Assembly: GCA_945910005.1 (NCBI GenBank)
Contig: OX246738.1
Span: forward strand, 27,381,303-27,445,302
Source of the DNA: Isoperla grammatica
Taxonomy: Eukaryota > Arthropoda > Insecta > Plecoptera > Perlodidae
DNA: 64,000 nt
Reading direction: 5' to 3'
The translations under genes were made by a program, and so were the position numbers. Below are positions 6,380-49,800 of this stretch, in pieces. Every line of letters starts with the position of its first letter. The stretch's first letter is position 1. A model generated the notes under the pieces. The model searched no databases and was not told where the DNA came from. It was given only the letters and a program-made list of their open reading frames with translations.

Positions 6380-7375
6380 CACAAGGTAGTATAAGAATAG
6401 CGAATAATTGTTTGAAATATTATTACTCAATGCTTAAGGGAGTAATAATACTGAATGAAAGCTGTGAAATAAAATTACTCTACTTGCTACCAAGAAAATT
6501 ACAAACCATGTCATTGCTACAAGGTACATCTTGATGATGTCAGACCAGTTACTTTCTACATTTAAATGCTGATTGCTAAGGGAGTAATAATATTGAATAA
6601 GTGACCTGAAATACTATTACTCTATGTGCTAAAGAGGAAATCGTGTACCATGTATTTTCAAAAGGGTCTATCGGGATGATGTAAGACTAGTTAATTTCTA
6701 CATTAAACCCCATTGTTAAGGGAGCAATAATATAGAATGAAAAGCCTGAAATACTATTACTCTCCCTGCTAACTATAAAGAAATACACCGTGTCATTGCG
6801 ACTAGGGTCATCGTGATGATATAGGTGTAGTTACTTCAACGTAATAACGTAGTTGTTTAAGAAGTAATAATATTGAATGAGGGACATAAAATAAGCTATT
6901 ACTTTACCTGCTAACGAGGAAGATACGATGACAGCAACTAGGTTCATCGTAATGATGTAAGTTAGTTACTTAAAACATCTAAAAACTCGGAGTAATTATA
7001 TTGAATGAAGAAGGTAGAGTAATATAGGCTACTATTACTCTACCTGCTATCAAGGAAATTATATACGATTTATTTGCTTACAACATTAAAAACACATTGT
7101 TAAGGGAGTAGGCCTAATAGTATTGAAGGATGTACCTGATATACTATTACTCTACCAGCTAAAGAGGAAATTTCATGATATGTGATTTCTCGTTAGCAGG
7201 CAAAGTAATAGTATTTCAGATCACTTATTAATTAAATATACTTACGCCCTTAGCAATGAGTATTAAATGTAGAAAGTAACGCTTACATAATCACGTCAAA
7301 CATTGTTGTCGATATTACATATACGGTATATCATTTCCTTGATAGCAGGTACAGTAATAGTGTAGCATAATTCTT
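6380..7375. repeat. ~142-bp tandem repeat, last part inverted
   Basis: The unit begins TTAAGGGAGTAATAATATTG and includes ATACTATTACTCTACCTGCTA. Direct units start near 6433, 6577, 6717, 6858, 6985 and 7100. From about 7165 to 7375 the same sequence continues in reverse complement (for example TAGCAGGTACAGTAATAG at ~7346), so the array contains an inversion. No coding potential is seen. Confidence 0.75.
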
Positions 7376-8033: not shown

Positions 8034-8130
8034 AGCTTCGGGATCGTAAAATGTGGGCCTTGTTCCATGTGGGCGTTATTCCATGTGGGCCTTGTTCCAT
8101 GTGGGCCTTATTCCTTGTGGGCGTTATTCC
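8034..8130. repeat. Third 16-bp minisatellite array (five units)
   Basis: Units at 8051-8130 in the orientation of the left arm, preceded by the same CTTCGGGATCGTAAA flank. It sits ~140 bp from the inverted array, so the two together could form a large hairpin. The sequence after the array differs from the other copies. Confidence 0.8.
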
Positions 8131-10118: not shown

Positions 10119-10660
10119 ATCAGTGTTGTTAAAGCAACTTTTTAAAAGTAGCACTGTTACAGCTACAGCTACTTGATCTTTGAAAGTAACTTAGCTACTT
10201 TTCAGCTACTGTATTTTGTCAAGTAGCTCGCTACTTGTACAGCTACTCAAAAAAAGTAGTGACGCTACTTTACAGCTACTTTCATTTTTTATAAAGGACC
10301 AAGAGTACGTACTATTTATTGAAACGGCGGTACGGTCCGGAGGTGAGGCTTACTCATATCACAGCTGACGGGGTGAAACAGGAAACTCAGTGCTGGGGAG
10401 GCGGTTAAAGCCAATGTCAGTCGTCATTCCGAACCTGTGACGGTGGCAATTGTGGCGGGCGAAACAAAACGTGTGTTTGTTTATTGCAAAAATAGAGTAG
10501 CGGCGACTTTTCGCTTCAAATACTCGCATATAGTAGCTTGCTACTTGCTAGGCCCTACTTTACCACATTTTCAAATGCAGCACGCTACCAGTCTCGCTAC
10601 CAAAAAAAGTAACATGCTACAAGTAGCGCGTTACTTGTACAACACTTTTTTACTTACTGT
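10119..10660. repeat. GCTACT-rich dispersed repeat, copy A
   Basis: Begins GTGTTGTTAAAGCAACTTTTT and carries many GCTACT/AGTAGC motifs at both ends with a ~250-bp unique middle. It aligns almost base for base with 32576-33985, where an hAT-like element interrupts it. It provides the uninserted reference for that insertion and for several GGCCTA insertions. It carries its own GGCCCTA insert at 10551-10557. Confidence 0.85.
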
Positions 10661-10949
10661 TAACAACACTGTTCAAAATCTATAATCAAGTACTATAAAA
10701 CTATAGGCCTATGTATTTATTACAAAGTACATAGGCCTAGTTGATTTGCTGCATTCTTTATTGGAGGGCCTACTGCCACTTAAAGATCAGAAATTTGAAT
10801 CTCATTAGAACCTCCTCTTCATATTATATTTCTTTTAAAGTTAGGTACAGTAGTTTATTTTCATAGGCTGTTTGCTTATTTTTCTGTGTTCTGTCATTGT
10901 ACTATGGTAATACATGGCTAATGGCTAATGTGATTTGTGTTCATTTTAG

Positions 10950-11903
10950 GTGTGGCCATGGCTCATATGCCATTGTCGTCTCCAGTAGCAAGAGAGCTCC
11001 CTCCTGCCAATCGCTCTTCAGCAGCTCTTCATGGTCGCCTCTCCCCGATGGTCTGCCCTCTGGTGAAACTCGGTCGACCGTCGTCGGCACTCGATCCTCA
11101 GGGGTATCACATACCCCAGTCGTATCATCTCTCGAGGGGATCTCCCGCCCTAGACCAGACGTACGCCGTGAGACGATCGCCGGCCCCTCAGGGGTACCGG
11201 GGGACTTCGCCCTCGGTGGACCGCGGCTACGAGCTCCGAAGCTCTCCCGCCCTGAGGAGGGCGTCGTCGCCCACTGCGGAACGTCGGTGCTATCTCCGCT
11301 CTCCCGTGCTCGACCCGGGTTACAAAATCGGGAGATCCTCGCCGTCTCTCGACCAGGGCTACCACACCCTGGTGTCGCCCAGTCCGGGGCCGTCGACGCC
11401 GGGGCCCTGGGCGGATGCTCTCGTCCTGCCGTCGGCTTCGGTCACGCAAAACACCGGGGCCGTTTACAAGGGCAAACGTTTCCACTCGAAAACCTCTCCG
11501 TTCGACAAGATCGCCGACGATTCCGTTTTGAAGATCTTCTCGTGGCTGGAGAGCGGCGACCTGCGCACCTGCGCTCGCGTGTGTCGCCGATGGGAAAACC
11601 TGGCGTGGGAACCATCGCTGTGGCGTTCCATCAGGCTGAGAGGCGACGACGTTTGCGGCGATCGTGCGGTGCGAGCGGTCCTGAGGCGATTGTGTGGACA
11701 GGGCCTCACCGGTGCGTGTCCCAACGTGGAGCGTGTGTTTCTCGGCGATGGTGCTCGCATTACGGACAAGGGACTGACGCTACTTGCGAGGCGATGTCCT
11801 GAATTGACTCATCTGCAGCTGCAGGGGTGTATCTCTGTTTCAAACTCGGCTATTTTTGAGCTCTCTATAAAGTGCTCCAATCTACAGCATCTTGATCTGA
11901 CAG
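10950..11903 (+). CDS. FBXL7: FBXL7 exon with Ser/Pro repeats, F-box and first LRRs
   Basis: Acceptor TTCATTTTAG ends at 10949; donor CAG|GTAGGC is at 11903/11904. Residues ~45-137 (numbered from the ATG at 10958) form a degenerate repeat of about seven units built on S-P-x-x-D-x-G-Y (SPALDQTY, SPSVDRGY, SPVLDPGY, SPSLDQGY). The exon is much more GC-rich than its surroundings, which keeps other frames open by chance. Confidence 0.9.
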
Positions 11904-12152
11904 GTAGGCTACATAATGTAAAAAATACAACTGATGATAGTGTCGGCTTTCTTTTGTAATGAGTACCGGTTCAAGAAAATAGTTTTATTAAAATAAATGT
12001 TAGTGTTGTAGGCCTAGATAAGTGGTTCTTGGCCTTTTATTAGTCCAGGCACACCTGGTAACAATGGCATCTGGTGGCACACTGTATTTTATTTACTTTT
12101 TTTACTTACCCGGTATATTTATTTATGAAAAAATATTAGCCTATTATTATTA

Positions 12153-15100: not shown

Positions 15101-17054
15101 TACTGAAGTTGAATCAACCCAGTAGCATCATGTCGTTCACATAATTTCCTAATAGGAATGTCAAACGATATGAAATTCCATATTGATAATCGCAACAACA
15201 ATACAAAATTATTGCAATAATATCGGCGCAAAAAATGATCATCTCAATATTGCATTTTCAATTTTTACCGCGATATTATAAAATAAGCACTAATACTACT
15301 TTTTAACATTGCGTCATATGTGGGGGGGGGAGGGTAGTGGCGAATAGTTACATCGAAGGAGGGCACTCGGCGGCTGGTCAGTGGTCGCTCGGCTACCGTT
15401 GAGCAGGCGCCAAATTTAAATATTAAATCAAGTCGCCGCGATTATCGGGATATCACACGGAATTTAATACCCTACGATTATCGCGATCGATATACGATAT
15501 TATCGATATTTATCGATATGCGATTATCGTTGACATTCCTACTTCCTAATATTCAAGAGCTGGGACTGGAGTTGAAACTATTTCAGCTTGATAGCTCTTA
15601 TCCCTTACATTCTTAACCCAGCCAATGAGAGACAATTTTTCATAAATGTGGCCAATGATAGCGATCCTAAAATGTGTAAATCGACCTTAAGGTGTCATGA
15701 TTAAAGAATACAAAATTATATCACAATGTAGAGGGCAGCTAATTTAATTAAGTATGACATAGTTTGAAGCTCCACTCCACCCCCTAGTTATGTGACCACC
15801 ACCCAGCATAACAAATATGACTGATTATAGCACAAGCCTCAATTCCAAAAATAGTCTTGTGATCGTGTTTTGTTTTGAACAAAAATTGAATATGCACCAA
15901 TCAAAGAAAGATACAACAATGAGTCCCCTTGCAACAGATTGTTGACCTACCCTGTGATGTCACAACGACCTCAATTGAGTCATGTGCTGTTAGAGCCAAG
16001 TAAAATTCGTGTCTAGTTCACATTGTGGAAACAAACATCTTGCTATTTTTATGCATATGTATGTGTAATCGGAATCGCCTAACACAAAAAGAGGTTACAC
16101 GTTTCTGAAACATGCTTTCGCTCATCCCTAATAGTTATTCTATTTAGCCTTGAGAATATGTGTCAATACGTACAAGGTTTTTAATATTGATTGGAATAAA
16201 ATAATGGAAATTGGAAGTAGAAAATTTGAACAGTTATATTAATTCTAGAAACAATAGGTGCCTTATCAAATTAGTTGTCAAAACACCCTACTTCATAATG
16301 AAATGTCTTGTATAGGCCTAATTGAGTAATTGTGAATGTTCTCAGATACTTTGTTACCAACCACTGTACCAATTTTTTAAATTGTATAATTGTGTTATGT
16401 TTCGGATAAACAACTGGAAAATGTAAATTTATTTTTTAATATTGGCAGTAGTCCTGCACCGTAAAGAGGGTCTTTTGGCGACCTCTAAACGTATTCATAA
16501 CTATTATTTTGGTTTCAGATGCCGGCATCAAATTTGTACCCAGCTTCTGCTCCATGCTACGCGAACTCAGCGTTTCAGATTGCAATCAAGTGACTGATTT
16601 TGGTCTGTACGAGTTGGCAAAACTTGGTGCTACGTTACGTTATCTCTCTGTCGCCAAATGTGACCAAGTGTCAGATGCTGGTCTGAAGGTGATTGCCAGG
16701 CGGTGTTATAAGCTGAGGTACTTGAATGCACGTGGATGTGAAGCAGTGAGTGACGACGCAATATCTGTATTGGCTCGTTCCTGTCCAAGGCTACGAGCTC
16801 TCGACATTGGAAAGTGTGACGTCAGTGATGCAGGACTAAGAGCTCTAGCAGAAAGTTGTCCTAATTTAAAAAAGCTTAGTTTAAGAAATTGTGATCTTGT
16901 AACTGATCGAGGTGTACAGTGTATAGCTTACTACTGCAGAGGACTCCAACAGTTAAATATTCAAGATTGTCAAATATCCTTGGAAGGTTATAGGGCAGTA
17001 AAAAAGTATTGTAAACGATGCATCATTGAGCATACAAATCCTGGATTTTTTTAG
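10958..17054 (+). CDS. FBXL7: F-box/LRR-repeat protein 7 (three exons seen; 5' end probably incomplete)
   Basis: FBXL7 is the substrate receptor of an SCF ubiquitin ligase: the F-box binds SKP1 and the leucine-rich repeats bind substrates. Join 10958-11903, 12580-12759 and 16519-17054, giving 553 residues if the first ATG is used (human is ~491). Residues ~182-227 are the F-box (core DDSVLKIFSWL, then CARVCRRWENLAWEPSLW). About 11 LRRs follow, with many HLDLTGC / YLNARGCE type units. The C-terminus CKRCIIEHTNPGFF is the family signature. Both introns are phase 1, and each split codon rebuilds a sensible residue (G, D). An acceptor-like TTCATTTTAG ends at 10949, and the frame stays open back to it (codons for V-A-M), so the true start may lie in an upstream exon. 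Identification is confident. Confidence 0.95.
11904..12579 (+). other. FBXL7 intron with (TTA)n microsatellite
   Basis: GT...AG intron (donor GTAGGC, acceptor TTGTACACAG). A TTA/TAT microsatellite occupies about 12136-12210. No other feature seen. Confidence 0.85.
12580..12759 (+). CDS. FBXL7: FBXL7 exon, middle LRRs
   Basis: 180 nt, phase 1 at both ends. It encodes GCTRISCIGM, then QYLDLTDCQEVEDGSLR and FLYLRRCLQIT, matching consecutive LRRs of the family. Donor is ACAG|GTCAGA. Confidence 0.93.
12944..13225. mobile_element. hAT-like MITE, 8-bp target duplication
   Basis: Termini TAGTGATACGTGAAAATAGC and GCTATTTTCACGTATCTCTA are imperfect inverted repeats. ATCATCAT flanks both sides (12936-12943 and 13226-13233). 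282 bp, no coding capacity. Confidence 0.75.
14166..14521. repeat. 178-bp tandem duplication
   Basis: Two head-to-tail copies, CATAGGTCTAAGGATGCGG at 14166 and 14344, nearly identical through to GGGAATCCAAACG. The high identity suggests a recent local duplication in the FBXL7 intron. Confidence 0.9.
14585..14725. repeat. Fragment related to the foldback at 18109-18320
   Basis: Shares GGAACCAACAGCTCACCTT, and GTTTCGGCTTACATAGCCTTG followed by TTCACCCG, with the element at 18.1 kb. Read on the minus strand this gives AAGGC...AAGCC-GAAAC, a stem plus GAAAC arrangement, but no complete hammerhead core is visible. Confidence 0.5.
14825..14846. repeat. Poly-C tract
   Basis: About 22 consecutive C residues inside the FBXL7 intron. 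Similar tracts lie at ~8368, ~8806 and ~60460; lengths may be unreliable in assembly. Confidence 0.8.
15060..15700. repeat. Older repeat carrying an hAT insertion
   Basis: The parts left and right of the hAT element at 15153-15541 match, in reverse complement, one uninterrupted stretch at about 30240-30430 (shared GTTGAATCAA, GTAGCATCATG, AGCCAATGAGAGACAA and TAGCGATCCTA). The 30-kb copy is therefore the uninserted form. Confidence 0.75.
15153..15541. mobile_element. hAT-like non-autonomous element, 8-bp target duplication (7/8)
   Basis: Termini TAGGAATGTCAAACGAT and ATCGTTGACATTCCTA. Flanks are TTTCCTAA and CTTCCTAA (15145-15152, 15542-15549). The interior is full of ATCGATAT-type motifs, as in the elements at 37849 and 41001. 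The uninserted site is visible in the repeat at 30 kb. Confidence 0.85.
15701..16440. other. Intron sequence, nothing recognised
   Basis: Unremarkable AT-rich intron. No repeats or conserved frames recognised. Confidence 0.5.
16519..17054 (+). CDS. FBXL7: FBXL7 terminal coding exon
   Basis: Starts phase 1 after GGTTTCAG and ends at TAG 17052-17054. It encodes the last seven or so LRRs (LRELSVSDCNQVTDFGL, LRYLNARGCEAVSDDAI, LRALDIGKCDVSDAGL) and the conserved tail. A possible ATTAAA polyadenylation signal lies at 17090-17095. Confidence 0.95.
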
Positions 17055-23109: not shown

Positions 23110-23160
23110 CCCAATGATATGTAACACCTATAGCCTACCATAGGTGTTACATATCATTGG
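23110..23160. repeat. Perfect hairpin upstream of PAM16
   Basis: CCAATGATATGTAACACCTA and TAGGTGTTACATATCATTGG are exact inverted copies separated by ten bases, ~250 bp upstream of the PAM16 start. It could be a small foldback insertion; a regulatory role is speculative. Confidence 0.8.
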
Positions 23161-23409: not shown

Positions 23410-23796
23410 ATGGCAAAATACGTAGCACAGATAATTCTAATTGGAACACAAGTAGTAGCACGTGCATTTGCCAAAGCAATAAAGCAAGAATTTGCTGCTA
23501 GTCAAGAAGCTGCACGTCGTGGTGGTGGTGGTAAACAAGGAACAAGTCGTGCAGCAGCGAACGCCAGGACTGGTATTACTGTGGAGGAAGCTCAACAAAT
23601 TCTCAACGTAGAGAAATTCGACAAGGAAGCTATCAGCAAGAACTATGATTATTTATTTCAAGCTAACGATAAGAGTAAAGGGGGATCATTTTATCTCCAG
23701 TCGAAAGTTGTTCGTGCCAAAGAAAGACTGGATCAAGAATTAGCGAATATATCAAGTAGTTCTAAATCTTCTCATGAAAAAGAAGACCGAGTATAG
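23410..23796 (+). CDS. PAM16: Mitochondrial import motor subunit PAM16 (Magmas/TIM16)
   Basis: PAM16 is a J-like protein at the matrix side of the TIM23 channel. It pairs with DNAJC19/PAM18 and restrains its stimulation of mitochondrial Hsp70 during protein import. The 128-residue product (human ~125) has the family N-terminus [20 protein letters not shown], a weakly hydrophobic membrane-associating segment. A Gly/Ala-rich spacer (~35-52) follows, then the J-like domain: EEAQQILNV (~59-67), [10 protein letters not shown] (~78-87), DKS at 87-89 in place of the HPD of true J proteins, and [18 protein letters not shown] (91-108). The whole frame is uninterrupted, although vertebrate orthologues have introns. 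It is either naturally intronless or a retrocopy; no A-tract follows the stop, and the frame is intact. Confidence 0.93.
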
Positions 23797-26038: not shown

Positions 26039-26989
26039 TCAGGCAGTATGTGGAAACGTTTCCAAATCTGAAATGGCTGCATTTCCTACATTTAATGACT
26101 CTTGTTGAATATCTGTTAAAACTACCACTTCATATGGAGCACAATCTTCATGTTTTAAGGTAGCACATAGCCATCCATAAAAACCCTTTTCCAAGTCTGT
26201 TATTTCTTTATACCAGCTGTCAAAAAACCATGACATTTGAACGATTCCCGCATAAATGCCAAGGCCTAATGTTAAGACAAAGATAAGAAATGGGTACACC
26301 AGAATAAGAAGAGGAGTGAATATCACTTTATAAACAACAGATTTTTCTTCTAAATAGTATGTAAACACATTGTACCATGTGATAGTCCCAATGTAAAAAG
26401 AATATATTCCTGATGCAACAATTGCAAAAGGGAGACAAAGGGTAGTCCAAATTGCAATATGTAAACCATTTCGAGAACTGCATGGGAACGAGCTACTGGT
26501 AACCGAGTGGCGTTTTGATGTGATAGTAGCTTCGAGTTCTTCCCGGGATATGTTAAGTTTGACGTCGAGACTTTGTCCAGCTTTTCTTCCACGTTTGATC
26601 GTACCGGTCATCGTAAGGAAACCATCCGTACTGCTGCTGATTGCGGAATGGTCGGCAACAGAATCGGACGTTTCCGACCCTCGTCTCAAAGCTGTAGTCT
26701 CAACGTAACCGTTACTGCCTTCTCCCTCTTCATCTATACCACCATTTTGGGTACATATGCTAGCAAGTTTCTTGAGTTTGGTTTTATTAATTACTTCATC
26801 TTGTGCTGAGGCGAGATGTGTATGTTTACATGTGGAAGAATTTGGTTCACTCTTATTCGTATGTGATTCATCAGTACTATCAAGAATATTTTCGTTTTGA
26901 ATATAGGAAGAATGGTCTAGTGATTCTTGGGAACTCCTGCTATGAGTGGATGACTTACAACTACTGGTTGGGATACAGCTCGGAGATTC
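26039..26989 (-). CDS. TMEM169: TMEM169 exon 2 (main coding exon)
   Basis: Acceptor TGTTTGCCTAG ends at 26990; stop TGA is at 26041-26039. Contains all conserved parts including both membrane segments. The frame is open without a methionine from 26989 to MTGTIK, so translation cannot start within the Ser-rich part. Confidence 0.92.
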   Translation of the reverse strand, partial: ESPSCIPTSSCKSSTHSRSSQESLDHSSYIQNENILDSTDESHTNKSEPNSSTCKHTHLASAQDEVINKTKLKKLASICTQNGGIDEEGEGSNGYVETTALRRGSETSDSVADHSAISSSTDGFLTMTGTIKRGRKAGQSLDVKLNISREELEATITSKRHSVTSSSFPCSSRNGLHIAIWTTLCLPFAIVASGIYSFYIGTITWYNVFTYYLEEKSVVYKVIFTPLLILVYPFLIFVLTLGLGIYAGIVQMSWFFDSWYKEITDLEKGFYGWLCATLKHEDCAPYEVVVLTDIQQESLNVGNAAISDLETFPHTA

Positions 26990-30163: not shown

Positions 30164-30453
30164 TGCTGGGTTTACCCACCATAATAAGGTTTAAGATTTA
30201 ATATTTTGTTCTAAAGAAAGTATTTTCCAAACTGATTTACTAGGATCGCTACCATTGGCCGGATTTATAAAAGCTTGTCTCTCATTGGCTGGGCTAAGAA
30301 TTTTAGGAATAAGAGCAAACAAGTTGGAATAGTTTCAACTTTCGTTCTAGCCCTTAAATCTTAGGAAGTTATGTAAACGCCATGATGCTACTGGCTTGAT
30401 TCAACTTCGTTAAACCTTTTACCTTAAACCTTATTACCGTGTGTAAACCGGGC
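30164..30453. mobile_element. MITE with ~30-bp inverted ends
   Basis: TGGGTTTACCCACCATAATAAGG and CCTTATTACCGTGTGTAAACC are imperfect inverted ends, and ATTTA-rich inner arms continue the pairing. It matches the sequence interrupted by the hAT element at 15153-15541. Confidence 0.7.
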
Positions 30454-31520: not shown

Positions 31521-32575
31521 TGATCGATGAAATGAAATGAAATCACAAGTGCGTTCATATTGCATTACATTTGTAACTGTATTGAGTGTCAGAATTCTGC
31601 AATTAATTCGGCCGAAATCAAAGTTTAAACAGGTTTAAATACCCCCCCTACCAAAAAAAGATTCGAAAGATTCGAAATCTACCGAGGTGATGGACAGACT
31701 GCGCCTCCAATCACGCCTCCTTTCAACTTTCATGTATGTGCATGTTAATGACGAGTAGGTAGTTGGTGAAACTACAATATCCAACAGTCCAGTCTTGTTG
31801 TTGTGGGCAGTTGTGGGTATTCTCTGCATTCAACGTTAAAGCCTAAATTGTTGCTATTTAATACACTGTATTCTTTTAAAATAGGTTTATCTGCTGTGTT
31901 TACTTCTATTTTTATTCCCGATTTATTCCTGTGTGTAGAAAAACAGCCGTCCGAAGTCTATCGTTGACAAATTACTTGTTTGGCCTACCTAGGCCCTAGG
32001 CCTAGGCTAGGTTTCCCGGGTTCTACAACCACAATGGTCTCTGGTTGCTCACAACGATTAGTTGCAATAAATTAAGGTAGGCCTAGGTTATAAGTATTAA
32101 AATACTTAAGTCTTGTCACTATAAAGTAAGGATAAGAGGGATAAGAGATTGGTCATCTCAATCGCGTGAAGGCCTAGGGCCTAGGCTAGGCCTAGGAATT
32201 AAGTGACAAAAGACCCCAAGGCCTAAGCCTAGGGCCTAGATAGGCCTAGGCCAAGTTTCACACATGGGAACACTATCTAGCCCTAGCCTAGGTCTAATCC
32301 TACTTGCTGAATCGTGGAATAGGCCTAGGCTAGGCCTAGTTTATTATCCACATAGGCCTAGGGCCTAGACCTAGACCTAACCTTCTAAACCAAATGTCAA
32401 GACTGAACTTATTACTTGTAGGCTAGGCCCTATGCCTAAGTCTAGGTCTAGGCCTATATCCTAAAACTGTACATGTAGGCTATGTAACAAAAATGTCATC
32501 AAAATAAAACTAGGCCCCTAGCATAGGCCTAGGCCTAGCCTATCTAGGCCTACCTATCTGTCTAGGCTATATTTA
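31521..32575. repeat. Dense (GGCCTA)n clusters
   Basis: From ~31985 to 32570 GGCCTA and CCTAGG occur every few tens of bases, often in runs such as TAGGCCTAGGCTAGGCCTAG. No gene seen. Confidence 0.75.
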
Positions 32576-32644
32576 TCAGTGTTGTTAAAGCTACTTTTTA
32601 AAAGTAGCACTGTTACAGCTACAGCTACTTGATCTTTGAAAGTA

Positions 32645-33493
32645 CGCTGTGTATATTCTTACGGCAGAACGTAAGATTTGCTGAAAATTATTCTTACGGC
32701 AAGTGCTGTTATTGGTCGTTTTTTTCACGTGTTAAGGCCGATGTACAATTGCCCGTTAACGTTAACGGGAACACGGTAACGGGAAGGGTTTCGATGCACA
32801 ATCACCCGTCAAGCAGACGCAAGTAAATAAAATATTATGTTTGTCAACCTGTATTTGTTATAGGTTTTAATACCGTATATTTGGCGCACCTGGTAATTTC
32901 GGCCAATCAACATTCGACCAGCTGATTAGGAGTAGGCCTACGTACAATTTTTAACAGGCCGTGGACATCTTGATTCTGAAATGGTTCCGGGAAGGCCCGG
33001 AACGGGAACGCTAACGAAAAGTTAAAACTTGGCGAATTTCCCGTTACAGTTACTGGGCCCGCAAACGGGAAGCTCTTAATGTGTATCGTAAGTTAACACG
33101 AGATCAAACTTTCTTCACGATCTAACCTTCATGGACCTTAACTAACGTCTCTAATGAATCGCCAAAAGCTTTAATCGCCCTGACATTTTTACCAGGAAAA
33201 TGTTGAATTCAAAATATAATTCAACGTACATTACAACTAGGAATGTAAAAAAAAAATAAAAAAAAAAGATTGGGCAAGATTCGAACCCTGGCCGTCCGCT
33301 TGACAGTCGAACTCGCTCACCACTAGGCCAATGTGACTGCTTACGGTAACAGCGTCTTGACTGCCATATAATATAACGATCCGGCCGCGCTTGCGCGACG
33401 TAAGAATAATTTTGACTGAGCAAATCTTACGTTCTGCCGTAAGAATATACACTCCGTTGATCTTACGTTCTGCCGTAAGAATATACACTCCGT
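32645..33493. mobile_element. hAT-like insertion with 8-bp target duplication, known empty site
   Basis: Flanked by TGAAAGTA on both sides (32637-32644, 33494-33501); copy A at 10119 has this octamer once. The inverted ends contain GTGTATATTCTTACGGCAGA. At the right end the terminal ~35-bp unit is present twice in tandem. The interior (849 bp in all) contains a tRNA-like sequence and no transposase. Confidence 0.9.
33271..33342 (-). pseudogene. tRNA-like sequence (Asp-type loop), probably a SINE head
   Basis: On the minus strand GGCCTAGTGGTGAGCG resembles an A box, CTGTCAA reads as an anticodon loop with GTC, and GGGTTCGAATC is a B box; a T-run follows. The acceptor ends do not pair and the anticodon stem is imperfect, so it is a tRNA-derived SINE or pseudogene and not a working tRNA. 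Confidence 0.55.
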
Positions 33494-33985
33494 TGAAAGT
33501 AACTAAGCTAGGCCTACTTTTCAGCTAGGCCTACTGTATTTTGTCAAGTAGCTCGCTACTTGTACAGCTACTCAAAAAAAAGTAGTGACGCTACTTTACA
33601 GCTAGGCTACTTCATTTTTTATAAAGGACCAAGAGTACGTACTATTTATTGAAACGGCGGTATGGTCCAGAGGTGAGTTATACTCATATCACAGCTGACG
33701 GGGTGAAACAGGAAACTCAGTTCTGGGGAGGCGGTTTTGGGACTATGGAGCAAGAAAGCTAATGTCAGTCGTCATTCCGAACCTGTGACGGTGAGAATTG
33801 TGGCGGGCGAAACAAAGCGTGTGTTTTTTATTGCAAAAATTGAGTAGCGGCGACTTTTTGCTACAAATACTCGTATATATTAGCTTGCTACTCGCTACTT
33901 TATTGCATTTTCAAATGTAGCGCGCTACCAGTCTCGCTACCAAAAAAAAGTAACATGCTACAAGTAGCACGTTACTTAACAACAC

Positions 33986-36959
33986 TGCTATTTATCTATC
34001 TGTCTATCTATCTATCCAGGCATATCTATCTATTGTAGCCTAACCATTTGCTGTCCATGCTAGGCCTTCGCTAGGCCTAGGCCTAGTGCTAAATGGTACC
34101 GGTAAAGGAACTGGTAACAGTTACCTACAATGTTAGCTAGGCCTGTGCCTTACTAGGCCTATCATCATACTTGGGGAAGGAACTTTTAAAATTAACATGT
34201 TCGAATTAGCCTATGACAAACTTTTGAACGAACACATCATGATAAGTAGGCCTATGAACTTTTCCTTTTTTTCTTTTCTTAGCCTGTGCCAAAGATGACT
34301 TTTTCAGCCATTCTTTTATCCAACTATCCAATATAAAAAAAGCTTCCTTTTCTGGCCTGCTCATATGATGGGGTAGGGAATCGATATGTACTTAATGGCA
34401 GCACATAAAGAGATGTGCCTTGTCTTGATCTTGGGAGCTACACCATAGCTCTAGGCCCTACTATATTTAACATTAACATTAACATTATTACACAATTTAC
34501 ACATTGCTGGTTTGTTACTGATGTTGAAATGGTTCAAGTGATGCTGTAGGATGTCGTGGCCAGTTGCATGCCGGAACTGAACGGTGGCTGTCTTTCTCGA
34601 GGTCAGTTTTTAATTAATATTAATAATAACGATGTAAAGTAGGCCTACCCACACAGGTTCGAAGCCTGGTCATGTTTTTATTTCATGCAATGAAATGATA
34701 CGATCACTAAATGTTTCTGTGGTTTTCATTTATAAGAGAAGGCATGATATTCAGTTTTCCTTAAGAAATTTTTTTGAAAGTGATAATAAACAGTGTTAAA
34801 TATGTTTCAGTAAGTAGATGATTTTGATTATAGGACTTATATTCGCGTTTAAATCCGAAGTGGCTGAACTCGGGCGGACAAATCGAGAACCAGTACAGCC
34901 GGGATTAGACCATTATCACATTAGGTTCCGAACTGACAATTGCAATCGTACACAATGAGCCAATAACTTTAATTATGTATTTGTTTGTTGTCTTATTAGT
35001 TATTATTATTGAATTTATTTCCTAGTTGCACGATTTTAGGATTTTCAGCTGTTCAAGTGTGATTGGAGAATTATAGATTGCGATTGCAATTGGCGACTCC
35101 AACCTACGATTCCAATTGTAGTGTGATATGGGCTTTAGCCGTGCGTTGTTTATCCCAGCTCGGACGGCCATGATAGTCACGACGGTGGCGCGCCTACATC
35201 TCGGTTTAAAGGCGAATAGCACAATATTAATTATTAAACCGTACAGTCCATGGCGGCACAGAAAAATTAATTTTTAGCATTTTGTATTTGTCGTCGCCAT
35301 CTGTAAACATATGTAGGCCTAGGTGTCTCAAATTTCGCACGGTTCCATTTTTTTTTTTTTTTATATCTGCTCCCTGTGTCCAACAATGAAGTCGGGTAGG
35401 GGATAGGAACTTAATCCCATCATATTCTGGCCCCTAGGTACATCGAAGCCGGCTGGCCATCCTGACGCTTCCCTCATGTTAACTTCCTCGTGTGTACATT
35501 TACACAAAATAAGCTCACCAAATAGGACAAATAATCGTGGTTATTCTATGTTTTACGAATTTGGCGGCCTGCGAGCCTTAAAAAATACACATGGAATGCT
35601 GATTGCACAAATTCAATAACCTTCTACTATATCCCTTTATTCCTTACTGTATTCTCCCCATATTCATGTTGGTATTAAAACCAACATGCATGTTTTAGAC
35701 AATATGAAAATAATAATGTGCTTATAAATATACCCTTAGGTAAACTCCAAGATCATTGGCAATGACTGTAAAAAACGGTGGTCCCATGTATGGTTTTTCA
35801 CCATAATATGAAGGATGCCATGAAATACACAGATGACATGCAGTGACCTAGGTCAGGAGGTGCAGGTCAATATCGTATCCAGGTAAGAATAATGTGGTTA
35901 TTCTGGCCTTGCTTCATTTCTATAATAATGAGTGGGCAGACGCCCGACGATCTTCCTCTCGTGGGGGGGAGGGGGGGCCAACAATAGCGTTGCAGGTGAA
36001 ATTTTTTTAAATCGAGCTTTAAGAGTGCGATCTTAGCGTTTCAGGAAATAATACAATACCGAAATCCTGTCGTTTTCGTAGTGCATAAACCAGAAAACCA
36101 GAAAAAAGAATAAGAACATTGACGAGAACTATAGTACTTGGATGTTCATAGCTGAGCTCGTTTTAGACTGCAGTTAGGCCTATCTGATATTGTAAAGTAG
36201 ACGTCGCAACATTGTGTATTGCGGGATCTAATCTAAGAAAATAGCGGGACGTATGTCAACCCAAGGGAGCGCGGTCGAGGGGCGGCGTCTTGCAGTTTTT
36301 CGTTTTCTGAAATAAAAATCATCTTGCCAACTGTTTGACTTTAAGGAAACCCAAAATACCTACCTCCTAGTCAAGCAGGCATATACTTGTCAAGTAGCAG
36401 GAAGGATATAGGGAAAAGTGCAGTCGACACACTAGTACAGTGACTACAGACAAGCTATGCAGTCTACTACAACATCGTAGGCTATTGACTTTTTAATTAG
36501 GTCTTTTCTAAAAAAGAAATGGGTGGACGCGTCCATCCATGAAAAAAGAGTAGGTGGATGCGTCCGCCCTAAAATTAAGCACTGGTGCCACATACATGGG
36601 AAAATGATGAAATTAACTGAGTCTTGTTTTGTATCACATAGCCTATTTGCACTTATAGCAATTCATACTAATCAGAATACGGGTAAAAACGTGGTGTTGA
36701 TTTTTTTATGAGGATACCGATGTCTCAAAAACCTAAGATGGAGGATGTTTCAAACGTGAAAATTGATAGGTATAATTATACATTTTTCTTTAGAAATAAA
36801 GAAAGAACATTCAGCTTAGGAAGTGATTTTAGTATCTCAAAATTTACTCAACAGTAATTAATTTTTGTCTTATATCTAGGCCTACATGTATCACACTTGT
36901 GGAGGCCTGCTTTGTAATGATATATTAAATTCAATATGGTCAGTAGACAAACTTTTGTT
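33986..36959. other. Intergenic; CTAT microsatellite, GGCCTA cluster, no gene supported
   Basis: A degenerate (CTAT)n stretch at ~33990-34035 and GGCCTA motifs at ~34060-34160. Poly-T and poly-G tracts occur near 35349 and 35970. No conserved frame was seen. SMAD4 5' UTR exons could lie here but cannot be recognised. Confidence 0.45.
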
Positions 36960-40800: not shown

Positions 40801-43800
40801 CAGCTGGCTCGCAGCGCCGGCAAGGCGGCAGTAGCTGACGTGCTGTATTGTTGTTTATCACGATCGTATTATATTCGAGATATATGATATTGTCCCCACT
40901 GGCTGCTCCAAAATCCACATTGTATTAAATTCGAGGCCGTATTATATTCGGGTCAATACGGTACATTATACATGCAGGCAGGTATTTGTGGTAAAAATAG
41001 TAGGGCTGCCCAACGATATCGATAATTCGATACAATATCGATAATAGATAAATAATTCGATATCGATATAGAATTAATTAAACCGTACATATCGCGATAT
41101 CGAACTTGTGCCTAATAAGCTAATTGATACAAAAAACCGATTACGTATCACGTCACGCCAACCACACTATCGCTGTTTTGTGTGGATATTTTACAATTTG
41201 AATAGTACAACAAACAAATTGACACACATAGTAAGACATTTCAAAGCTAAAATATTTATTTACGTAATATTGTTTAAAGAATGACCTCTAGCTGGCCTGT
41301 AAATCCTGAAAACAGACGAGAAAAGTTTCGATGTGGCGATATCGCCGATATCGATACGTCACTTGAAAACTTTGATATCGCGACGCGATATCGATATTTC
41401 TTCCCGCGATATCGATATGATTTTTTTTATCGTTAGGCAGCCCTAAAAAATAGATACATAGTCCTACAATATGCAGCATGATGATCAGAAGACTAATTTT
41501 GGGCATATGAAATGATGATGATAATATCAATAATTCGATTCGATATCGATACCGCGAGACAATGGAGGTTAATTTTGATATTGATGTGGTATTTTCAGCT
41601 GAAATATCACGATATCTTGGTCAACTTAAAGTATTACCATATTTTTGACACGTGCTACTGCAGTTTCTGGCTGCAAATTTCCCTCTCGGCTCTACCGGGA
41701 CAACTGGTGCACTCTGCTACACGGAGTCTTTCTATACATTTGAACCCGAAATTCTTTTTCGAGAAGAATGATGTTTGGTATTGTTTGTTGACTACTTTTA
41801 TGACTGTCAAAAGTCTATAACTATCAGCCTTGACTCATCGTACGAATTCTTTCTCTTCTCACTAATGCAACGGCTTTATTCCTGTATAGGGCACTAGCAA
41901 CACCAAAAGACAACAATGAAACAAATTAATTGAATCGATGGACAAACAACAAGCTGTCAAAAAATAATTTTGTCTGATTTTGGAAAACAAACAAAGAAAT
42001 ACACATAGGCCTACAGTACAAAACTTTCACATAGACATTGTCTATCATTAAAAGTTTTAAATGGCGAGCAGTTACTATTGCTACACTTGTTTTTATTTCT
42101 ATGGTTACAATTTTATTATATTGACAGCTGATGGTTTGTCCATCAGTTCAATTAATTTGTTCCAATGTTGTCTTAGGTGTTGCTAGTGCCCTATAGCAAA
42201 GTGTAATGCAGACTACAGCCAAAATGTTTTGATTTTGAGTTCATAGGGATATCCCGATAATGGTGGTGGGAAAGAGGGTTACATGTAGGGAAGGCAATAG
42301 GATGCATAGGCCTACATACATATTATACTGAAGGGCAAGACCAAAATATTTTAAAATTAACTACGATATCTTCTGTATTTTTTTTTTAGTAGGCCTACTG
42401 CCAAAAAAATTTGATATCATATTTATCTCAATTAGTAAATGTTAATACTGTATATATCTACACTTTGTGCCAACATCATTTTGTTGGGTAAAGAGGTGAT
42501 TTACCCCGGCTAAAATTGCACCGATGTCAATACTGTTAAAATGTTGTGTGGTAAAAACAAAATTCGACGCTTAAAAATGTTTAATTTTTATTACAAAATC
42601 GCCAATTTGGGACATCAAAAAATTAATTCTTCTTTAACAAAAAATACTTCCTTTGAACTACATTTGTAACCTGCATTTACACAGCTAGATCGCTGCATCA
42701 AAATTCTCAACCATAGGCTAAAAATTGAGTTTTAATTTTTTCACCACCAATATACCACTTTTGTGGGTAGCAAAAACGAAAATTTATTTTCAACATAAAT
42801 ACCTTCCTGTGCATATACATAGCAGGCACACAAAATATGCTAGCTTTAAGGTTTAGAGACAGACCAGCATTAATTACACCTGATTGTGATTGTATGCGCT
42901 GTGCAGTCGCATATCTGTCCTTTGCCCCCTTTCCCGTTGTATTCACGGGTACAGAACTACCTTAGAGCCCATTTTCTTTCCAAATCATGGCAAATAGAAT
43001 CTTGCTACAACATTTAAGGTTGGGAGTATTTTAAACATAATATCTTTACTTATGTAACTTGCCACTTTTATGAATTTCATCCGTAAATACGGATATTTAC
43101 CTAGGTCTCCATACGGATTCAGGGATACCTATCGTACACGTTTTACGGATACATATTAACTAAATTTAAAAAAGGTGTTTTTTTTTGCAAGTTTCTAACT
43201 TTTGCACTTTTGAAGTCTATGAAGCAATATTTTGATTGTTTCGTTTTGTTAAGTTAACACCTTGCGCACCAAACATCGAGAGATCGATAATATACTGATT
43301 CATTTGCTTCATTGCCTTCGAAAGTGTAAACTTTTGATTCTAAACGTTGTACTTTTGAAGGCAATGAAGCAATATTTTGATCCATATTGTTTAGTTTTGT
43401 TAAGTTGACACCTGGCGCACCAAACATCGAGAGATCGATAATACCGTATTTACACGCATATAAGCCGCACTTTTTTTCTTATTTTGTGTCTCTCAAAACT
43501 AGGGATGTCAACGGGTACCCGTTACCCGCCCGGTACACACGGGTACGGTTCCAACTTTTCAATACCCGTTACCCGGTACTAGCCTACCCGTTCCCTTCTT
43601 CTGTTCAAAACGAAATCAATTCAACATTGCGATATTTTCCCCTACTGACCTCTTTGTGCGAGCGTACGAGCCGCGCTTTTCAATTTGCCGGCATTTAACT
43701 TGACACTTCCCCCCCCCCCCTCGTCAAGATTAGTCATCGTCGCAAAAAAATGAGACGTATTAGTATCATCTTCTGTAGGCCTATGGAAGAATGCTGCGGA

Positions 43801-46800
43801 ACGGTTGCGAGTCCGAGGGAGCGCACCTGCCCGTCGTAGCTTTACCGCAATCATGTTCTCGTGTTCGAGCTCGGACTTCGACGTCATCGCTTTGACGCGG
43901 CCGACCACCGAATTCATAGCTTTGTTGAATACTTCCGCGATCGTTTTGCATCGAAGACAATGCAACCTGATACCGTTTAACAATATAATGTCTCTTTCCA
44001 CAACTTTGCAAATCATTTGACACCCATGATGGTAAAACGCGTATTTAGTATTATTTACTACCCGGGTAGTCCGGGTACGGCGCGAGGGTACCCGGGTACA
44101 GCTATTTCTGGGTATTGACATCCCTACTCAAAACCACCATGCGGCTTTTTTTCGTAAGTGAAAAAAAAATCCCGGGTTTACGGGTGTTATGTTCGAACCT
44201 GGCATCAAATTATTAGGCTCTGCGACAAAGTGAGTCATTCGTCGTCGTGTTTGTCGGGCGTCCCTTGCTCTACAGCATGATGTTTTGTTGGCCCGCTGCC
44301 AGCCGCTCGCCCGCGCATCTGGCGTACGCATCACCAACTCCTCCCCTCCCCAAACCCCTATGAACTCAGTGCATTAGCGGGCCAGCGGGATGCAGAGAAC
44401 TACCTATGGTACATTCCTCACATTAGCTCTTACACTCACATAACCTCTATTACCGAATACTGCCAGTTCCTTATTACATACCAATTATTACTTCACATTA
44501 TTTTCTGGTCCTTTCTCGAATATAATAAATGCGGCTTATAAACGGAAACAAATTGTTTTCTGAAAAGTAAAGTTCAAAAAGTGCACTGCGGCTTATAATC
44601 GTATGCGGCCTTTATGCGTGTAAATAGGGTATACTGATTCAATTGCTTTATTGCCTTCAAAAGTGGAAACTTTTGTGGGGGGAAAAAAATGGTTTGTAAA
44701 TTTGAAATTTAAGCTGCAGTGGTATATTTTCGTGGCCTATTCTCTAAAATGGAGAAGCGACGGACATTTTTGCCTGATCACGATCGCAATAAATTATGTT
44801 TGGCGGGATAAAACTGAGCAAATTAAAGTGGCTTAAAATGGACAAGTAATGTGCAAACGTTCTCTTTTTATTATTCAGTTCAGTTAATTAACTGTACATC
44901 AATACTTTTTTGTATTGTATATTCCAGGGTATATTCTTGTTTCCTACAGGATATTTTTGCTTGGAGAAGTGGCAGTCGTGAACTATAATATTGAACTAAA
45001 TTATCAGTATGTAAGAGAAGAATAATGAAAAAATGATTCACAATTTACTTCAATGTTGATTTTACATTTTATGTAGGATACGTTTATGTTAAATAAATCT
45101 ATACATATTTATATAGGCCTATATGATTGGACCTGGTTATCAGATCTTGGTACTATTTATTTACATCAGCAATGAACCCCTTTTAGCCACTGAACACTTA
45201 TAAATGGTTCCAAAGGTTACTTGCCTCCGTTACTAGACTTGACCAGTAGCAAGTTCTCTACGCACACACGTATCACACTAAATCCTTCTTCTGCTGTTCC
45301 TTTATGATTTCTTATTATTTTACCCCTAGGTGTTTTGTTTTGTTTTGTTTTGTTTTTACTGCCTGTGTTTTATTTGGTTGATTTTTTAGCTAGGACCCCA
45401 GCTCCCTTCTCTCCAACAGGTGACATATCATTGTTTGGAGCGCCCGGTCGAACCAACAAAATGGAGCCTCCACCAGACCCTTGTCCTCGCTCCACTTGGC
45501 TGCCGACAAGATTAACACATCGTAAGGCGTTCACTTAACACTTTCTGGCAGGGCTGCTTATTTAACGGGTGTGATCCATTTTCACAGATATTAAGGACGC
45601 AAAACAAATTGGCAGATGTTTCATTGTTAGTTGCTGACATAATATTGCGATGCTAATTTCTCCAAGATTGTGTGTACAGTACATTTTAGTTTGCTGGGGT
45701 TTATTTAAAAGTGTCATCTGGTTCATAATTGGACTTCATTTAAACTTATTTTGACCGTTTTTGCGGATTTTCAGGGCATAAAAAGAATACACGAATTTTA
45801 CTAATAGTTTTAGTAGGATATTTCTTTATTTTTAATTAATATTTTTCGTAAATTATAATCTACATGTACTTTTGGATAAGCAGTTGTGGTAGCATTAGCA
45901 GGTCTATAGTGAGTGGTTCTGCCCAATTTTAAAATGGCATCTGACCATGGAATCTGTTGCAATAAAGCTTAATTTTGTGATGTTTGATTTTCATCTAGTA
46001 TGTCAATTGTCAATAATCTCAAATGTTGATGATTAAAATGTCATTCACAAGTGCATTACTCAAAATTGAGAATTATTGAGAGCAGCCCTTTGGACTAAGT
46101 TATCTTATAGTTTTGGTCAGCCCTGTTAAGAATTGAGCCTGTTTTTTTTTATTAATACTTTTTGTTTTATTACTTAATTTTATAGTTGATCCTACCATCT
46201 TTTCTATTGTAACATCAAGAGCAACCAAACATTAAAATTGTTTATGTGTTCGAGTGCTACTACATCACTGAAAAGAGAGGCGATTATTTTCAGAAAACGT
46301 CAACCTTTTAGAATACAGTAAAACTTCTTTATAGCAAACTCTTAGGGGACGGATTATTATTTTGTTATAAAGAACATTTCTTTATAAAGATGGTAGCCCT
46401 ACCTTTACATGCATAAGAACCTTTTGGGACCTAAAAACACTTTGTTGTACCATATAGATCATTTTGTTATAAAGACGTTTGCTAAAGAAGTTTTACTGAA
46501 TATCAATCAATAGCTACATACGTAATCTTTTTTTTTTCCTTCTTGTGCCAAGATGGCTTTTTTACATACGTAATCTAAAGTTCCAATCTCCTTTAAAAGC
46601 AATGTCATATTATAACATAAAATTGGATTTGTAAGGTATATAGGCTACTAATTTCTTTACAAAATATGGTAATAAAAAGGGGCAGCCATATACTTCTTTT
46701 ATATATACTAGGCCTATATATAATTGTTTGTAAAAAAAAATATATGGAAAGCCAGTGGCCAGTGCTAATTTTGACTTTAAGGCTAAGTTTGTAGTTTGTA

Positions 46801-49800
46801 CTTTAAATCGAAGTTTTCGTGTAGCGAATAGTTTAGATTAATAATGGGAAAAATAAAATGAATTGAAAAAATAGCTTGTTTCAATGTTTACCCATTATTG
46901 TTTTTTGGGAGGTTCACCTGTTTTCGATATCGAGGTTATACTGTATTCACATTCGGTCGAAAATTCTCTTTAAATTTTATTGCATTATGTATTTGCAAAC
47001 ATTATCCAAAATTCGAATAGGCCTAGCGTACTTATTTACATTTTTTAGTTAGTTCTAGGTGCTTAAACCAACCTGATCCAAGCTACTCGATGGAGTTAAC
47101 TGGATCCATCGTAATGTTGTGATTAACTCGATCCGGGGCAGTTCACGAATGGATGTATTATTTGGCGAGTTATTTTGCAGTGCAAACTGTTTCATCAATG
47201 TCAGTCACACATCCAAGCCTAGTCACGAATTATTCATTCACTTAATTACTCGTCATAAAAGTGTTAAATATTTCATTCCCTCAGAGAAGTGTTTTCACAT
47301 TACTCCGATATTGTCTGAAACTTGCTGCCATTGATTCATATTGCCGCCACAATATGGTGTCTTGATCCAACTAACCCTGGTCCGAGAACTGATCACCGGA
47401 TCACTGATCCGATGGAACTGGATCACGTTCACGAACATGGATTCGATTAACTCGATCAAGTATACATAAGACCACCCGTGATCTGAGTTACTCAGGTCAG
47501 GTCATGCCTTCTGTAACATTAGCTCCATCGAACTCGTAACTGGCCATAGGTATTACTATTATCTATTCTCTAAGAATAATACATTATTTCACGTGTTTTA
47601 CTTTTAGTATAACTTGTTTTGAAAATTTCTGTCTAGACTGACAAGATGCCTCTAGTTCCATTTCATTTCCTTGACCAAGCTAATTATAGGCATACATGAG
47701 AAGAATAGATTTCAACAAACTTGCAATACACATAGGCCTACTTGTATTCCGTAGAGATTGTCAAGTATTAGAAACTAAAGAGTAAAAGTGTGGAACTCAA
47801 ATACCAAATCGGTTATCTTTCATTACTATGTACTATGTATGCATCTTGATTTTCATTGTTTGTTGTGTTTTCAGCTGCGCCACCACTGGTGCATACTACT
47901 GCCTCAACCGAGAGCACTTCATCCAGTTTGGTGGGAACGTCACAAGCAACCAAACCTCCTCAGCCAACTGGCTCACTCGTCTCCTCCCCACAGCTGACCT
48001 CAACCTCTCAGGGACCCTTTTTTGGGGCTGACAATCAACCAGATAGCCAGACATCACTGACTGGAACACTAGGTATGTCCATTCAATCAGGATGGTTACT
48101 GATCTTGAGTCAAGTATTATTTGGGTGGTATTAAAGAAAAGAAATAATTTTTGTCAAACAAGTGTTTTTTTTTTCATCATATATTTTAATTTTTTAGAAG
48201 TATAAATTCTTTATTTTATAAATACATGAAGAGTACATTTTTATTCACAGAAACTCCTGAGCAGCATAGCTATGTAGCCTACTGTCAAACCAAAAAAATC
48301 TATTTCTTATCATAATGTTTGCTGATATATAAAAATATAGGGCTGTGCGAGTACTCGAAAAGTCGAGTTCGGTCGAGTAGTTACTACTCGACTCGAGGTG
48401 ATCGAGTTTTTCATGAAAAACGAGTCGAGTTCGAGTAGTTTTGATCGACTGAGCCGCCGTACTCAACTGGTTAAAAATACCGCCAATAGGTAGCGCTAGT
48501 ATCCAAAAATAGCTTAAGTATCGATTTTATAATCGACTTTGAAGAAAAAGTGACCTATCGATCATTATCGAGCAGATCGATACACGTAGACCGCGCAGAC
48601 GACGCTTATTTGGCCATTTCTCTATGATTTGGCCTATACTTCTGCAAATTCGCAAAAAGTGTCTGCGTTTTTTGTGAACTAAGTGTGGATGTTGTAGAAG
48701 TGGCAGCCAAACAAATGGAAGGGAATCTTCGAGAACCTAGGCCTCTGGCCTACGAGATCGCTGACGCATAGGCCTACTATGTTCAAAGAGCCTAGGCCTA
48801 GGCCTAGCATAGGCCTAGCCTAGGTCTAGGCCCTAGGCCTAGACCTAAAAGTACCTAATCATCAAAGATATTATATTCCCTACTGATCATAATGTATTTG
48901 GAATCATTTTTAAAACGTTCCATACAACTTAAGTTCAAAATGTAATCTTTGCATTATTAACCTCAAAATGGGGAAACACTCGCCAACGGTCTCACAAAAA
49001 CAAAAGTGGCCATCTGACAACCCATCTGCAAAACAGATTACACTGTAGTTCTATTGTTTCTCTTAAAGTCTTTCTCCTGTGCCAGGTCCCCGTGTACAGT
49101 GTAGGCCTAGTCCTAGGCCTAGCATTTGGCCATGCTTCGAGCATAGCCCTAGCCTATCCCAAGACCCAAGACCTAGGCCAAGCCTTAGTACTTTCCTTGT
49201 CTAGATCACGTAGGCCTAGACCCAGTTGGCAGAATTGAGCATCGTTTGAGCCTTAGGCCTAGGGAGACAATAATATTGAACAAATTACAGTATATGGTTT
49301 TAGGCCTGGCCCCAGGGACAGCTTTTAGGCCAAGGCCTAGCCTAGGTGAACTCGGCGATAGCTTAGATGGGGTCCTAGGTCTAGTCTGCCTAGTCCTCTA
49401 CCGGTAGTTATTCCTTTCCTGTATCTTTTTAATATATTCAGGCACTACTCGAAACTCGCAAGTTATTTACTTCTCGAACTCGACTCGATTTGGAAAAGTG
49501 CTACTCGCACACCCCTATACAAATAACATGTGTATAAATGAGGGTAACAATATTTAAGAAATCCTCTTAGGGAAAAAAAGGACAACTACCAGTAGTCAAT
49601 TTTACATTAATGTAGCAAATTAAATAAGGTATACAATACAAATACTAATAATAAGACATATTGACATTGTCATTGGCTATATAATTAAGAAGAACTAAAT
49701 AACAAATAGACGTAAGTAGAGTAAAGCCAGTTTCCCACGGCGCGAGGGTTGTCAAGCTAGTCCGAACTTGGACATGTGCAAGTTGGTGACCTGTGACTGC

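What the first reader, a model, noticed from the sequence alone, without database searches (positions are those of the whole stretch)
33505..33612. GGCCTA micro-insertions at TA sites, seen by comparing repeat copies
Two copies of one dispersed repeat (10119-10660 and 32576-33985) differ by clean gains after a TA. Copy B has GCTA-GGCCTA-CTTTT (33511-33516), GCTA-GGCCTA-CTGT (33528-33533) and GCTA-GGCTA-CTTC (33605-33609) where copy A has GCTA-CT. Copy A has GCTA-GGCCCTA-CTTTA (10551-10557) where copy B has GCTACTTTA. The recurrent form TA-GGCC-TA is a palindrome flanked by a TA duplication. It would recreate TA sites and so could build the (GGCCTA)n clusters seen across the window. One hypothesis is that these are excision scars of a TA-targeting transposon with GG...CC ends; another is a new kind of microsatellite birth. 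The variants GGCTA and GGCCCTA fit imprecise repair. Direction (gain versus loss) is inferred from many sister GCTACT motifs lacking it.
Basis: partly seen in the sequence, partly recalled or inferred. Interest (0 to 1): 0.8.

Follow-up and report, generated by a model that had tools for sequence, protein, structure and literature searches.

The report
TAGGCCTA scars flood an insect genome
In this insect genome the eight-letter word TAGGCCTA keeps being created by insertions of GGCCTA at TA sites, most likely scars left by a jumping gene that has not yet been found, so a few bases of repair scar have become a conspicuous word of the genome.

Summary
The two repeat copies belong to a hAT-like MITE family. 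A consensus of 41 copies lacks GGCCTA at every point, so the differences are gains. Seven 6-bp insertions occur in those copies: six turn TA into TAGGCCTA, and the seventh is also TA-flanked (TACGGGTA). In a second MITE family (40 copies), the only insertions of 2 bp or more are GGCC gains at TA, one of them joined to a TA-CAG-TA gain. TAGGCCTA occurs 83 times in the window against 0.75 expected and 245,368 times in the 874-Mb genome. Variants GGC, GCC, GGCCC and GG also occur. Clusters fit independent nested insertions, not slippage. Flanks show a short preference around TA. That element was NOT found. The one TA-flanked GG-ended MITE family seen inserts at a different context (CTA-TA-TAG) and is rejected as the source. 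Further transposase searches did not complete, and no population data were available. Insertion at TA is shown; the mechanism is inferred.

The parts
10121..10671 (+). hAT-like MITE, copy A (ends CAGTGTTG...CAACACTG; 8-bp TSD TTCAAAAT on both sides)
   Evidence: in 23 of the 27 family copies where both ends could be read the 8-bp TSD matches with at most 1 mismatch
10549..10557 (.). TAGGCCCTA: GGCCCTA gained after TA in copy A
   Evidence: absent from the 41-copy consensus
32577..33987 (+). hAT-like MITE, copy B, split by a nested element at 32645-33492
33509..33516 (.). TAGGCCTA scar (GGCCTA gained after TA)
33526..33533 (.). TAGGCCTA scar (GGCCTA gained after TA)
33603..33609. TAGGCTA scar (GGCTA gained after TA; the aligner split it, so it is seen only)
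   Evidence: consensus lacks it
7109..7116 (.). TAGGCCTA scar in one copy of a repeat; sister copies near 6405, 6549 and 6695 lack it
41887..42193 (+). MITE1: TA-flanked MITE (consensus 301 bp), TIR GGGCACTAGCAACACC, used as a second trap family
42006..42018 (.). TA-GGCC-TA-CAG-TA: a GGCC gain and a CAG gain at one original TA inside MITE1
   Evidence: the MITE1 consensus has a single TA here
31982..32566 (.). cluster of nested TA-X-TA scars of mixed X (GGCC, GGC, GCC, GGCCC, GGGCC, GACC)
48769..48848 (.). cluster of nested TA-X-TA scars of mixed X

Best explanation
TAGGCCTA is the dominant excision footprint of a cut-and-paste DNA transposon that inserts at TA (Tc1/mariner-like) and whose ends read 5'-GG(C/G)...(G/C)CC-3'. 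Insertion duplicates TA. Excision leaves a few terminal bases of each end as 3' overhangs, and end joining keeps them: GG+CC gives TAGGCCTA; shorter or longer remains give TAGGCTA/TAGCCTA, TAGGTA/TACCTA and TAGGCCCTA/TAGGGCCTA. If the overhang is GGCC, the two overhangs are self-complementary and would anneal cleanly, which would explain why one product dominates. Every scar re-creates TA sites, so scars nest into clusters. Shown: gain at TA, TA duplication, spectrum of variants, independent nesting, a base preference around TA, about one GGCC gain per 93 substitutions. Inferred: that a transposase made them, the overhang chemistry, the end sequence.
For: Gains, not losses: the 41-copy consensus lacks the insert. 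6 of 7 six-bp insertions are GGCC at TA, and both insertions of at least 2 bp in 40 MITE1 copies contain GGCC at TA. Four further places (W 7109, L043, L049, L051) show the same presence/absence difference; only 7109 is polarised. The TA-X-TA spectrum in 204 kb peaks at GGCC (x77), then GGGCC/GGCCC (x25) and GGC/GCC (x4.6); without the window x58, x20 and x2.8. TA is required: of 16 palindromes xyGGCCy'x' only the TA-flanked one is greatly enriched (x77; next x6.5 on 5 sites). A TA-CAG-TA gain, the form known for Sleeping Beauty-type elements (recalled), lies beside a GGCC gain. Flanks show a short preference. Tc1/mariner footprints are the 3' overhang bases (PMC7827188, passages), in the range of 2-4 bp (PMC7913693, passages).
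Against: No element with TA-GG...CC-TA ends and a TA duplication was found in 222 kb except MITE1, whose target preference (-1 A 0.90, -2 T 0.62, -3 C 0.51) differs from that of the scars (-1 A 0.23, C 0.29, G 0.35, T 0.13). No candidate end pair was seen at 8 DDE_3 loci, but in L098, L099, L102 and L104 the inverted repeats run past the stretch fetched, so their ends were not seen. Classical footprints keep one overhang (e.g. 3 nt), whereas here four bases dominate and TAGGTA is barely enriched (x1.0-1.2). 245,368 sites would need a long-lasting, very active source.
Confidence: 0.6

Rival explanations
1. No mobile element is involved: a repair or replication process at breaks with TA ends adds GG to each end and joins them (for example telomerase or another polymerase adding the GG of the insect telomere repeat TTAGG), giving TAGG|CCTA.
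For: TAGG|CCTA equals two telomere-type ends head to head (the TTAGG repeat of insects is recalled knowledge); variants with G, GG or GGG on either side fit untemplated ends; no transposon with such ends was found.
Against: T before TAGG is depleted, not enriched (0.13 vs 0.34); TTAGGCCTAA is the least enriched of the four symmetric contexts (4 seen on both strands, x8.2, against CTAGGCCTAG x857, GTAGGCCTAC x140, ATAGGCCTAT x45; the C figure is inflated by arrays). Longer additions exist but are few: TTAGGTTAGG 8 seen on both strands in 204 kb, 0.47 expected, 4 of TAGGTTAGGTTAGG. It does not explain the duplicated TA or the flank preference.
Confidence: 0.13
2. Ordinary microsatellite birth and slippage of a GGCCTA unit.
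For: (GGCCTA)n arrays exist: 18,023 TAGGCCTAGGCCTA matches in the genome.
Against: Scars arise as single units at unrelated TA sites in repeat copies. In arrays, neighbouring units are the same no more often than by independent draws: 24 of 78 adjacent pairs, 22.5 expected.
Confidence: 0.05
3. TAGGCCTA is a functional protein-binding site kept by selection (a regulatory or chromatin motif), in the manner of bacterial highly iterated palindromes.
For: Strong over-representation, clustering, and absence from 2,964 bp of coding stretches (0 seen, 3.8 expected).
Against: It is gained as an insertion in young MITE copies at about 1% of the substitution rate, and with non-palindromic variants; selection does not make insertions.
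Confidence: 0.05
4. MITE1 (TIR GGGCACTAGCAACACC, TA TSD) or a close relative is the source.
For: TA on both sides in 34 of 40 copies, GGG...CCC ends, and 2,592 first-look candidates in the genome (40 scored).
Against: It inserts at CTA-TA-TAG (-1 A in 90% of flanks), while scars sit in a different context.
Confidence: 0.07

Closest known systems
Excision footprints of Tc1/mariner transposons (Tc1, Sleeping Beauty, Mos1, ZB)
   Same: TA target, TA duplication, a few extra bases between the two TA, variants by end trimming; PMC7827188 says the footprint equals the 3' overhangs left by the transposase (passages read).
   Different: Here the dominant remnant is a 4-base palindrome, the source element is unknown, and the word numbers 245,368 in one genome. 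My listings showed no report of such a case (with 40 of 182 papers listed, 13, 20, 47, 73, 104, 122).
Genome-wide excision patterns of DNA transposons in rice (PMC4423477)
   Same: Genome-scale view of DNA-transposon excisions and their footprints (passages read).
   Different: There footprints are compared per locus between two genomes and are described as complex; here one uniform scar is the second most over-represented octamer of the window among those seen at least 8 times.
HIP1 (GCGATCGC) in cyanobacteria, PMC4390886
   Same: A highly iterated octamer palindrome (start of abstract in a listing).
   Different: HIP1 lies in bacteria and is linked to methyltransferases; TAGGCCTA here is gained by insertion at TA.

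Membership tests
Tc1/mariner excision footprint | inserted bases lie between two copies of the target TA | tested here: met
   6 of 6 GGCC insertions in 41 hAT-MITE copies, 2 of 2 in 40 MITE1 copies
Tc1/mariner excision footprint | inserted bases equal the terminal bases of a resident element | tested here: inconclusive
   no TA-flanked GG...CC element except MITE1 in 222 kb (threshold 10 of 12 and 14 of 20 TIR bases, so poorer TIRs pass unseen); 8 DDE_3 loci gave no candidate, most ends out of view; other transposase searches unanswered
Tc1/mariner excision footprint | short target preference around TA | tested here: met
   positions -4 to -1 deviate (p 0.002, 1e-8, 9e-5, 1e-18), -5 to -10 all 0.1 or above (98 sites), partly confounded by mutated neighbouring scars; 44 strictly isolated sites give -1 p 2e-6, -3 p 0.002, and also -8 p 0.011 and -16 p 0.028 among 20 positions. 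Both flanks were pooled, so symmetry is by construction.
Tc1/mariner excision footprint | filled (element-bearing) alleles at scar sites | not testable with these tools
   no second genome or reads of this species
ISL2EU / PIF-Harbinger (GG-ended elements) | AT (ISL2EU) or TWA (Harbinger) target duplication | tested here: not met
   scars carry a TA duplication; TSDs as given in PMC4482050 (passages)
hAT (TAGG-ended hAT-type elements occur here: W 15153-15541, W 41001-41445, L056 4294-4970) | 8-bp target duplication | tested here: not met
   scars duplicate only TA; these three elements have 8-bp duplications
Microsatellite slippage | in-phase identical neighbouring units | tested here: not met
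   24 identical of 78 adjacent pairs, 22.5 expected

The most novel reading that the evidence does not exclude
A sequence-specific micro-insertion process (either a hyperactive TA-transposon that excises so efficiently that it leaves a quarter of a million scars but almost no copies, or an enzyme that inserts GGCC at TA with no mobile element at all) continuously writes one 8-bp palindrome into an animal genome at about 1% of the substitution rate.
Probability: 0.3. Interest if true: 0.88.

Novelty: new variant of a known kind. Interest (0 to 1): 0.64.

Why it matters
If these are footprints, excision rather than insertion of a transposon is a major, dateable mutational input: about one GGCC gain per 93 substitutions (8 per 742; 95% range 0.5-2.1 per 100). 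Scars would record past activity where the elements themselves are gone, give the target preference and end sequence of a vanished element, and explain how a dispersed palindrome can arise without selection. If no element exists, it is an unknown insertion mutagenesis.

Tried and rejected
MITE1 as source: rejected by target preference (vs 91). TAGG-ended hAT-type elements: 8-bp duplications; the one at 15153-15541 was noticed only on rechecking, and its paralogue at 30241-30433 shows the empty site. ISL2EU/Harbinger: wrong TSD. TIR scans for TAGG...CCTA in the window and in window + L039-L058: apart from MITE1 and the hAT types, hits are scar arrays, inverted repeats that run on past the TA, or weak pairs kilobases apart. 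DDE_3 family search (109 matches; 8 loci read, L098-L105): long-inverted-repeat families and a 940-bp mariner with TA-CGAGGTGTGGC ends, no candidate with GG ends, though most ends were out of view and the output was cut. Split-alignment search for inserts (38 rows): no GG-ended insert with a TA duplication. Patterns of three close TAGGCCTA in viral contigs and genome contigs gave 11 and 27 stretches, short local repeats without clear excess of the 7-bp variants, judged unrelated. Paper searches gave no report on the motif in what was listed; the one passage with the word in a cockroach paper is a primer. One search gave no rows through a wrong BLAST setting; rerun.

Full report
What the window is. 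The window lies on contig C5 (27,381,303-27,445,302) of an 874,298,753-bp genome in 603 contigs. A TMEM169 gene on the minus strand (26039-26986) is 59-72% identical to proteins of Periplaneta, Cryptotermes, Bacillus, Timema and Anabrus, and a TIM16 gene (23413-23796) has a cricket as its first species-named match. It is therefore an insect close to Polyneoptera; the order was not determined. FBXL7 as the name of the coding stretches at 10934-11959 and 16452-17054 is recalled, not searched.

The observation. The repeat is a hAT-like MITE with ends CAGTGTTG...CAACACTG; among 27 copies where both ends could be read, 23 have an 8-bp duplication with at most one mismatch. Copy B contains an 848-bp nested inverted-repeat element.

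Gain or loss. The genome search gave 945 first-look candidates for this family, of which 40 were scored. I fetched the 39 scored copies other than copy A and added copies A and B (41 in all). Their consensus has no GGCCTA (0 TAGGCCTA in 536 bp). Against it there are 40 insertions of 3 bp or more. Seven are of 6 bp: six are TA to TAGGCCTA in five copies (B twice, L076, L081, L091, L097), and one is TACGGGTA (L095). Other TA-flanked ones are TAGGTA (L072), TAGCCTA and TACCTA (L097), TATGTA (L095) and GGCCCTA in copy A; the GGCTA of copy B was split by this aligner and is seen. The rest are of other kinds: ten copies carry a 14-bp insertion near one place, several are local duplications, and a 9-bp one in copy B is the duplication made by its nested element. 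In the window, 7109 is a GGCC gain that three sister copies lack, one of them reading CA instead of TA. In a broader comparison of sampled sequence, 11 GGCC rows at TA fall at 10 distinct places, since L043 and L044 overlap; those in L043, L049 and L051 are presence/absence differences without polarity. A larger 6-bp class in that table (24 rows) was not examined; I take it for an old indel shared among MITE copies.

A second family. MITE1 (41887-42193; TIR GGGCACTAGCAACACC) has 2,592 first-look candidates, of which 40 were scored. In 40 copies (38 of the 39 scored copies other than the window's, plus the window copy and L045) the only insertions of 2 bp or more are TA to TAGGCCTA in L132, and TA to TA-GGCC-TA-CAG-TA in the window copy. 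GGCC gains per substitution agree: 6 per 574 and 2 per 168.

Genome scale. TAGGCCTA occurs 245,368 times; the reversed word, which contains CpG and so is only a rough control, occurs 3,576 times. TAGGCCTAGGCCTA occurs 18,023 times, its reverse once. In the window there are 83 against 0.75 expected from dinucleotides and 6.9 from a third-order model, which itself absorbs part of the signal. Fourteen sampled 10-kb stretches hold 0 to 28 each. In 204 kb, TA-X-TA words are enriched for X = GGCC (x77), GGGCC/GGCCC (x25) and GGC/GCC (x4.6), hardly for GG/CC (x1.2); without the window the figures are x58, x20, x2.8 and x1.0. Of 16 palindromes TA-xyy'x'-TA, TAGGCCTA stands alone (x77; next TATATATA x7.5), and of 16 palindromes around GGCC the TA-flanked one is at x77, the next at x6.5 on 5 sites.

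Flank preference and nesting. Flanks of 98 TAGGCCTA sites with no recognised scar within 12 bp prefer C/G at -1, disfavour A at -2, prefer A/G and avoid T at -3, and prefer C/G at -4. Some of this is contaminated by mutated neighbouring scars; 44 strictly isolated sites still give p 2e-6 at -1 and 0.002 at -3, with nominal deviations also at -8 (0.011) and -16 (0.028) among 20 positions. In chains of scars, 24 of 78 neighbouring pairs are identical, 22.5 expected for independent draws. The 83 window sites are clustered, and none falls in 2,964 bp of coding stretches, 3.8 expected.

Mechanism. Tc1/mariner transposases insert at TA and cut a few bases inside the element, leaving 3' overhangs on the donor that become the footprint (PMC7827188, passages; PMC7913693, passages; PMC4423477, passages). 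An element ending GG...CC would leave TA-GG-CC-TA when both overhangs are kept, or a self-complementary GGCC overhang that anneals; trimmed or longer remains give the observed variants. The CAG gain next to a GGCC gain is of the Sleeping Beauty type (recalled). All of this is inference: no such element was seen. MITE1 looked right by its ends but inserts at CTA-TA-TAG, unlike the scars, so I reject it. ISL2EU and Harbinger have other target duplications (PMC4482050, passages). Elements with TAGG...CCTA ends do occur (W 15153-15541, W 41001-41445, L056 4294-4970) but have 8-bp duplications, as hAT elements do. Eight DDE_3 loci gave no candidate, with most ends out of view. Searches for PF01359, PF01498 and PF13359 transposases did not complete.

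Rate and age. Under a constant rate and loss by substitution in the 8 bp, the genome-wide density corresponds to about 3% divergence of accumulation (1.4-8% over the confidence range). This assumes that the two MITE families sample the genome fairly; density is very uneven, so it is rough.

Verdict. The indel excess is real, polarised as gain in two MITE families and at 7109, and specific for TA-GGCC-TA. Accumulated excision scars of an unidentified TA-transposon are the likeliest cause; an element-free insertion process is not excluded.

Noticed in passing
window 32645-33492: 848-bp element with inverted ends (CGCTGTGTATATTCTTACGG / CGGAGTGTATATTCTTACGG) inserted in MITE copy B with an apparent 9-bp duplication TTGAAAGTA.
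   Followed up: partly
window 15153-15541: 389-bp insert with ends TAGGAATGTCAA...TTGACATTCCTA and an 8-bp duplication (TTTCCTAA / CTTCCTAA); the paralogue at 30241-30433 shows the empty site with one CTTCCTAA. hAT-type by its duplication.
   Followed up: yes
window 43443-44630: about 1.19-kb insertion with ends CC(G/C)TATTTACACGC and an apparent TA duplication inside another repeat; CCC...GGG ends could account for the TACCCGTA-type gain in L095, though TACCCGTA is not enriched in the sample (2 seen, 4.6 expected).
   Followed up: partly
window 41001-41445 and L056 4294-4970: hAT-type elements with TAGGG...CCCTA ends and exact 8-bp duplications AAAAATAG and GTTGCTAC.
   Followed up: partly
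window 7009-7048 and 23111-23160: TAGGCTA/TAGCCTA lies at the tip of two hairpins; may be coincidence.
   Followed up: no
L098, L099, L102, L104: DDE_3 transposase genes inside elements with very long inverted repeats (about 400-870 bp or more); L098 and L099 are 98.9% identical over 2.9 kb.
   Followed up: no
window 41-152, 7799-7910, 8051-8130: 16-bp minisatellite ATGTGGGCGTTGTTCC in three places, in both orientations.
   Followed up: no
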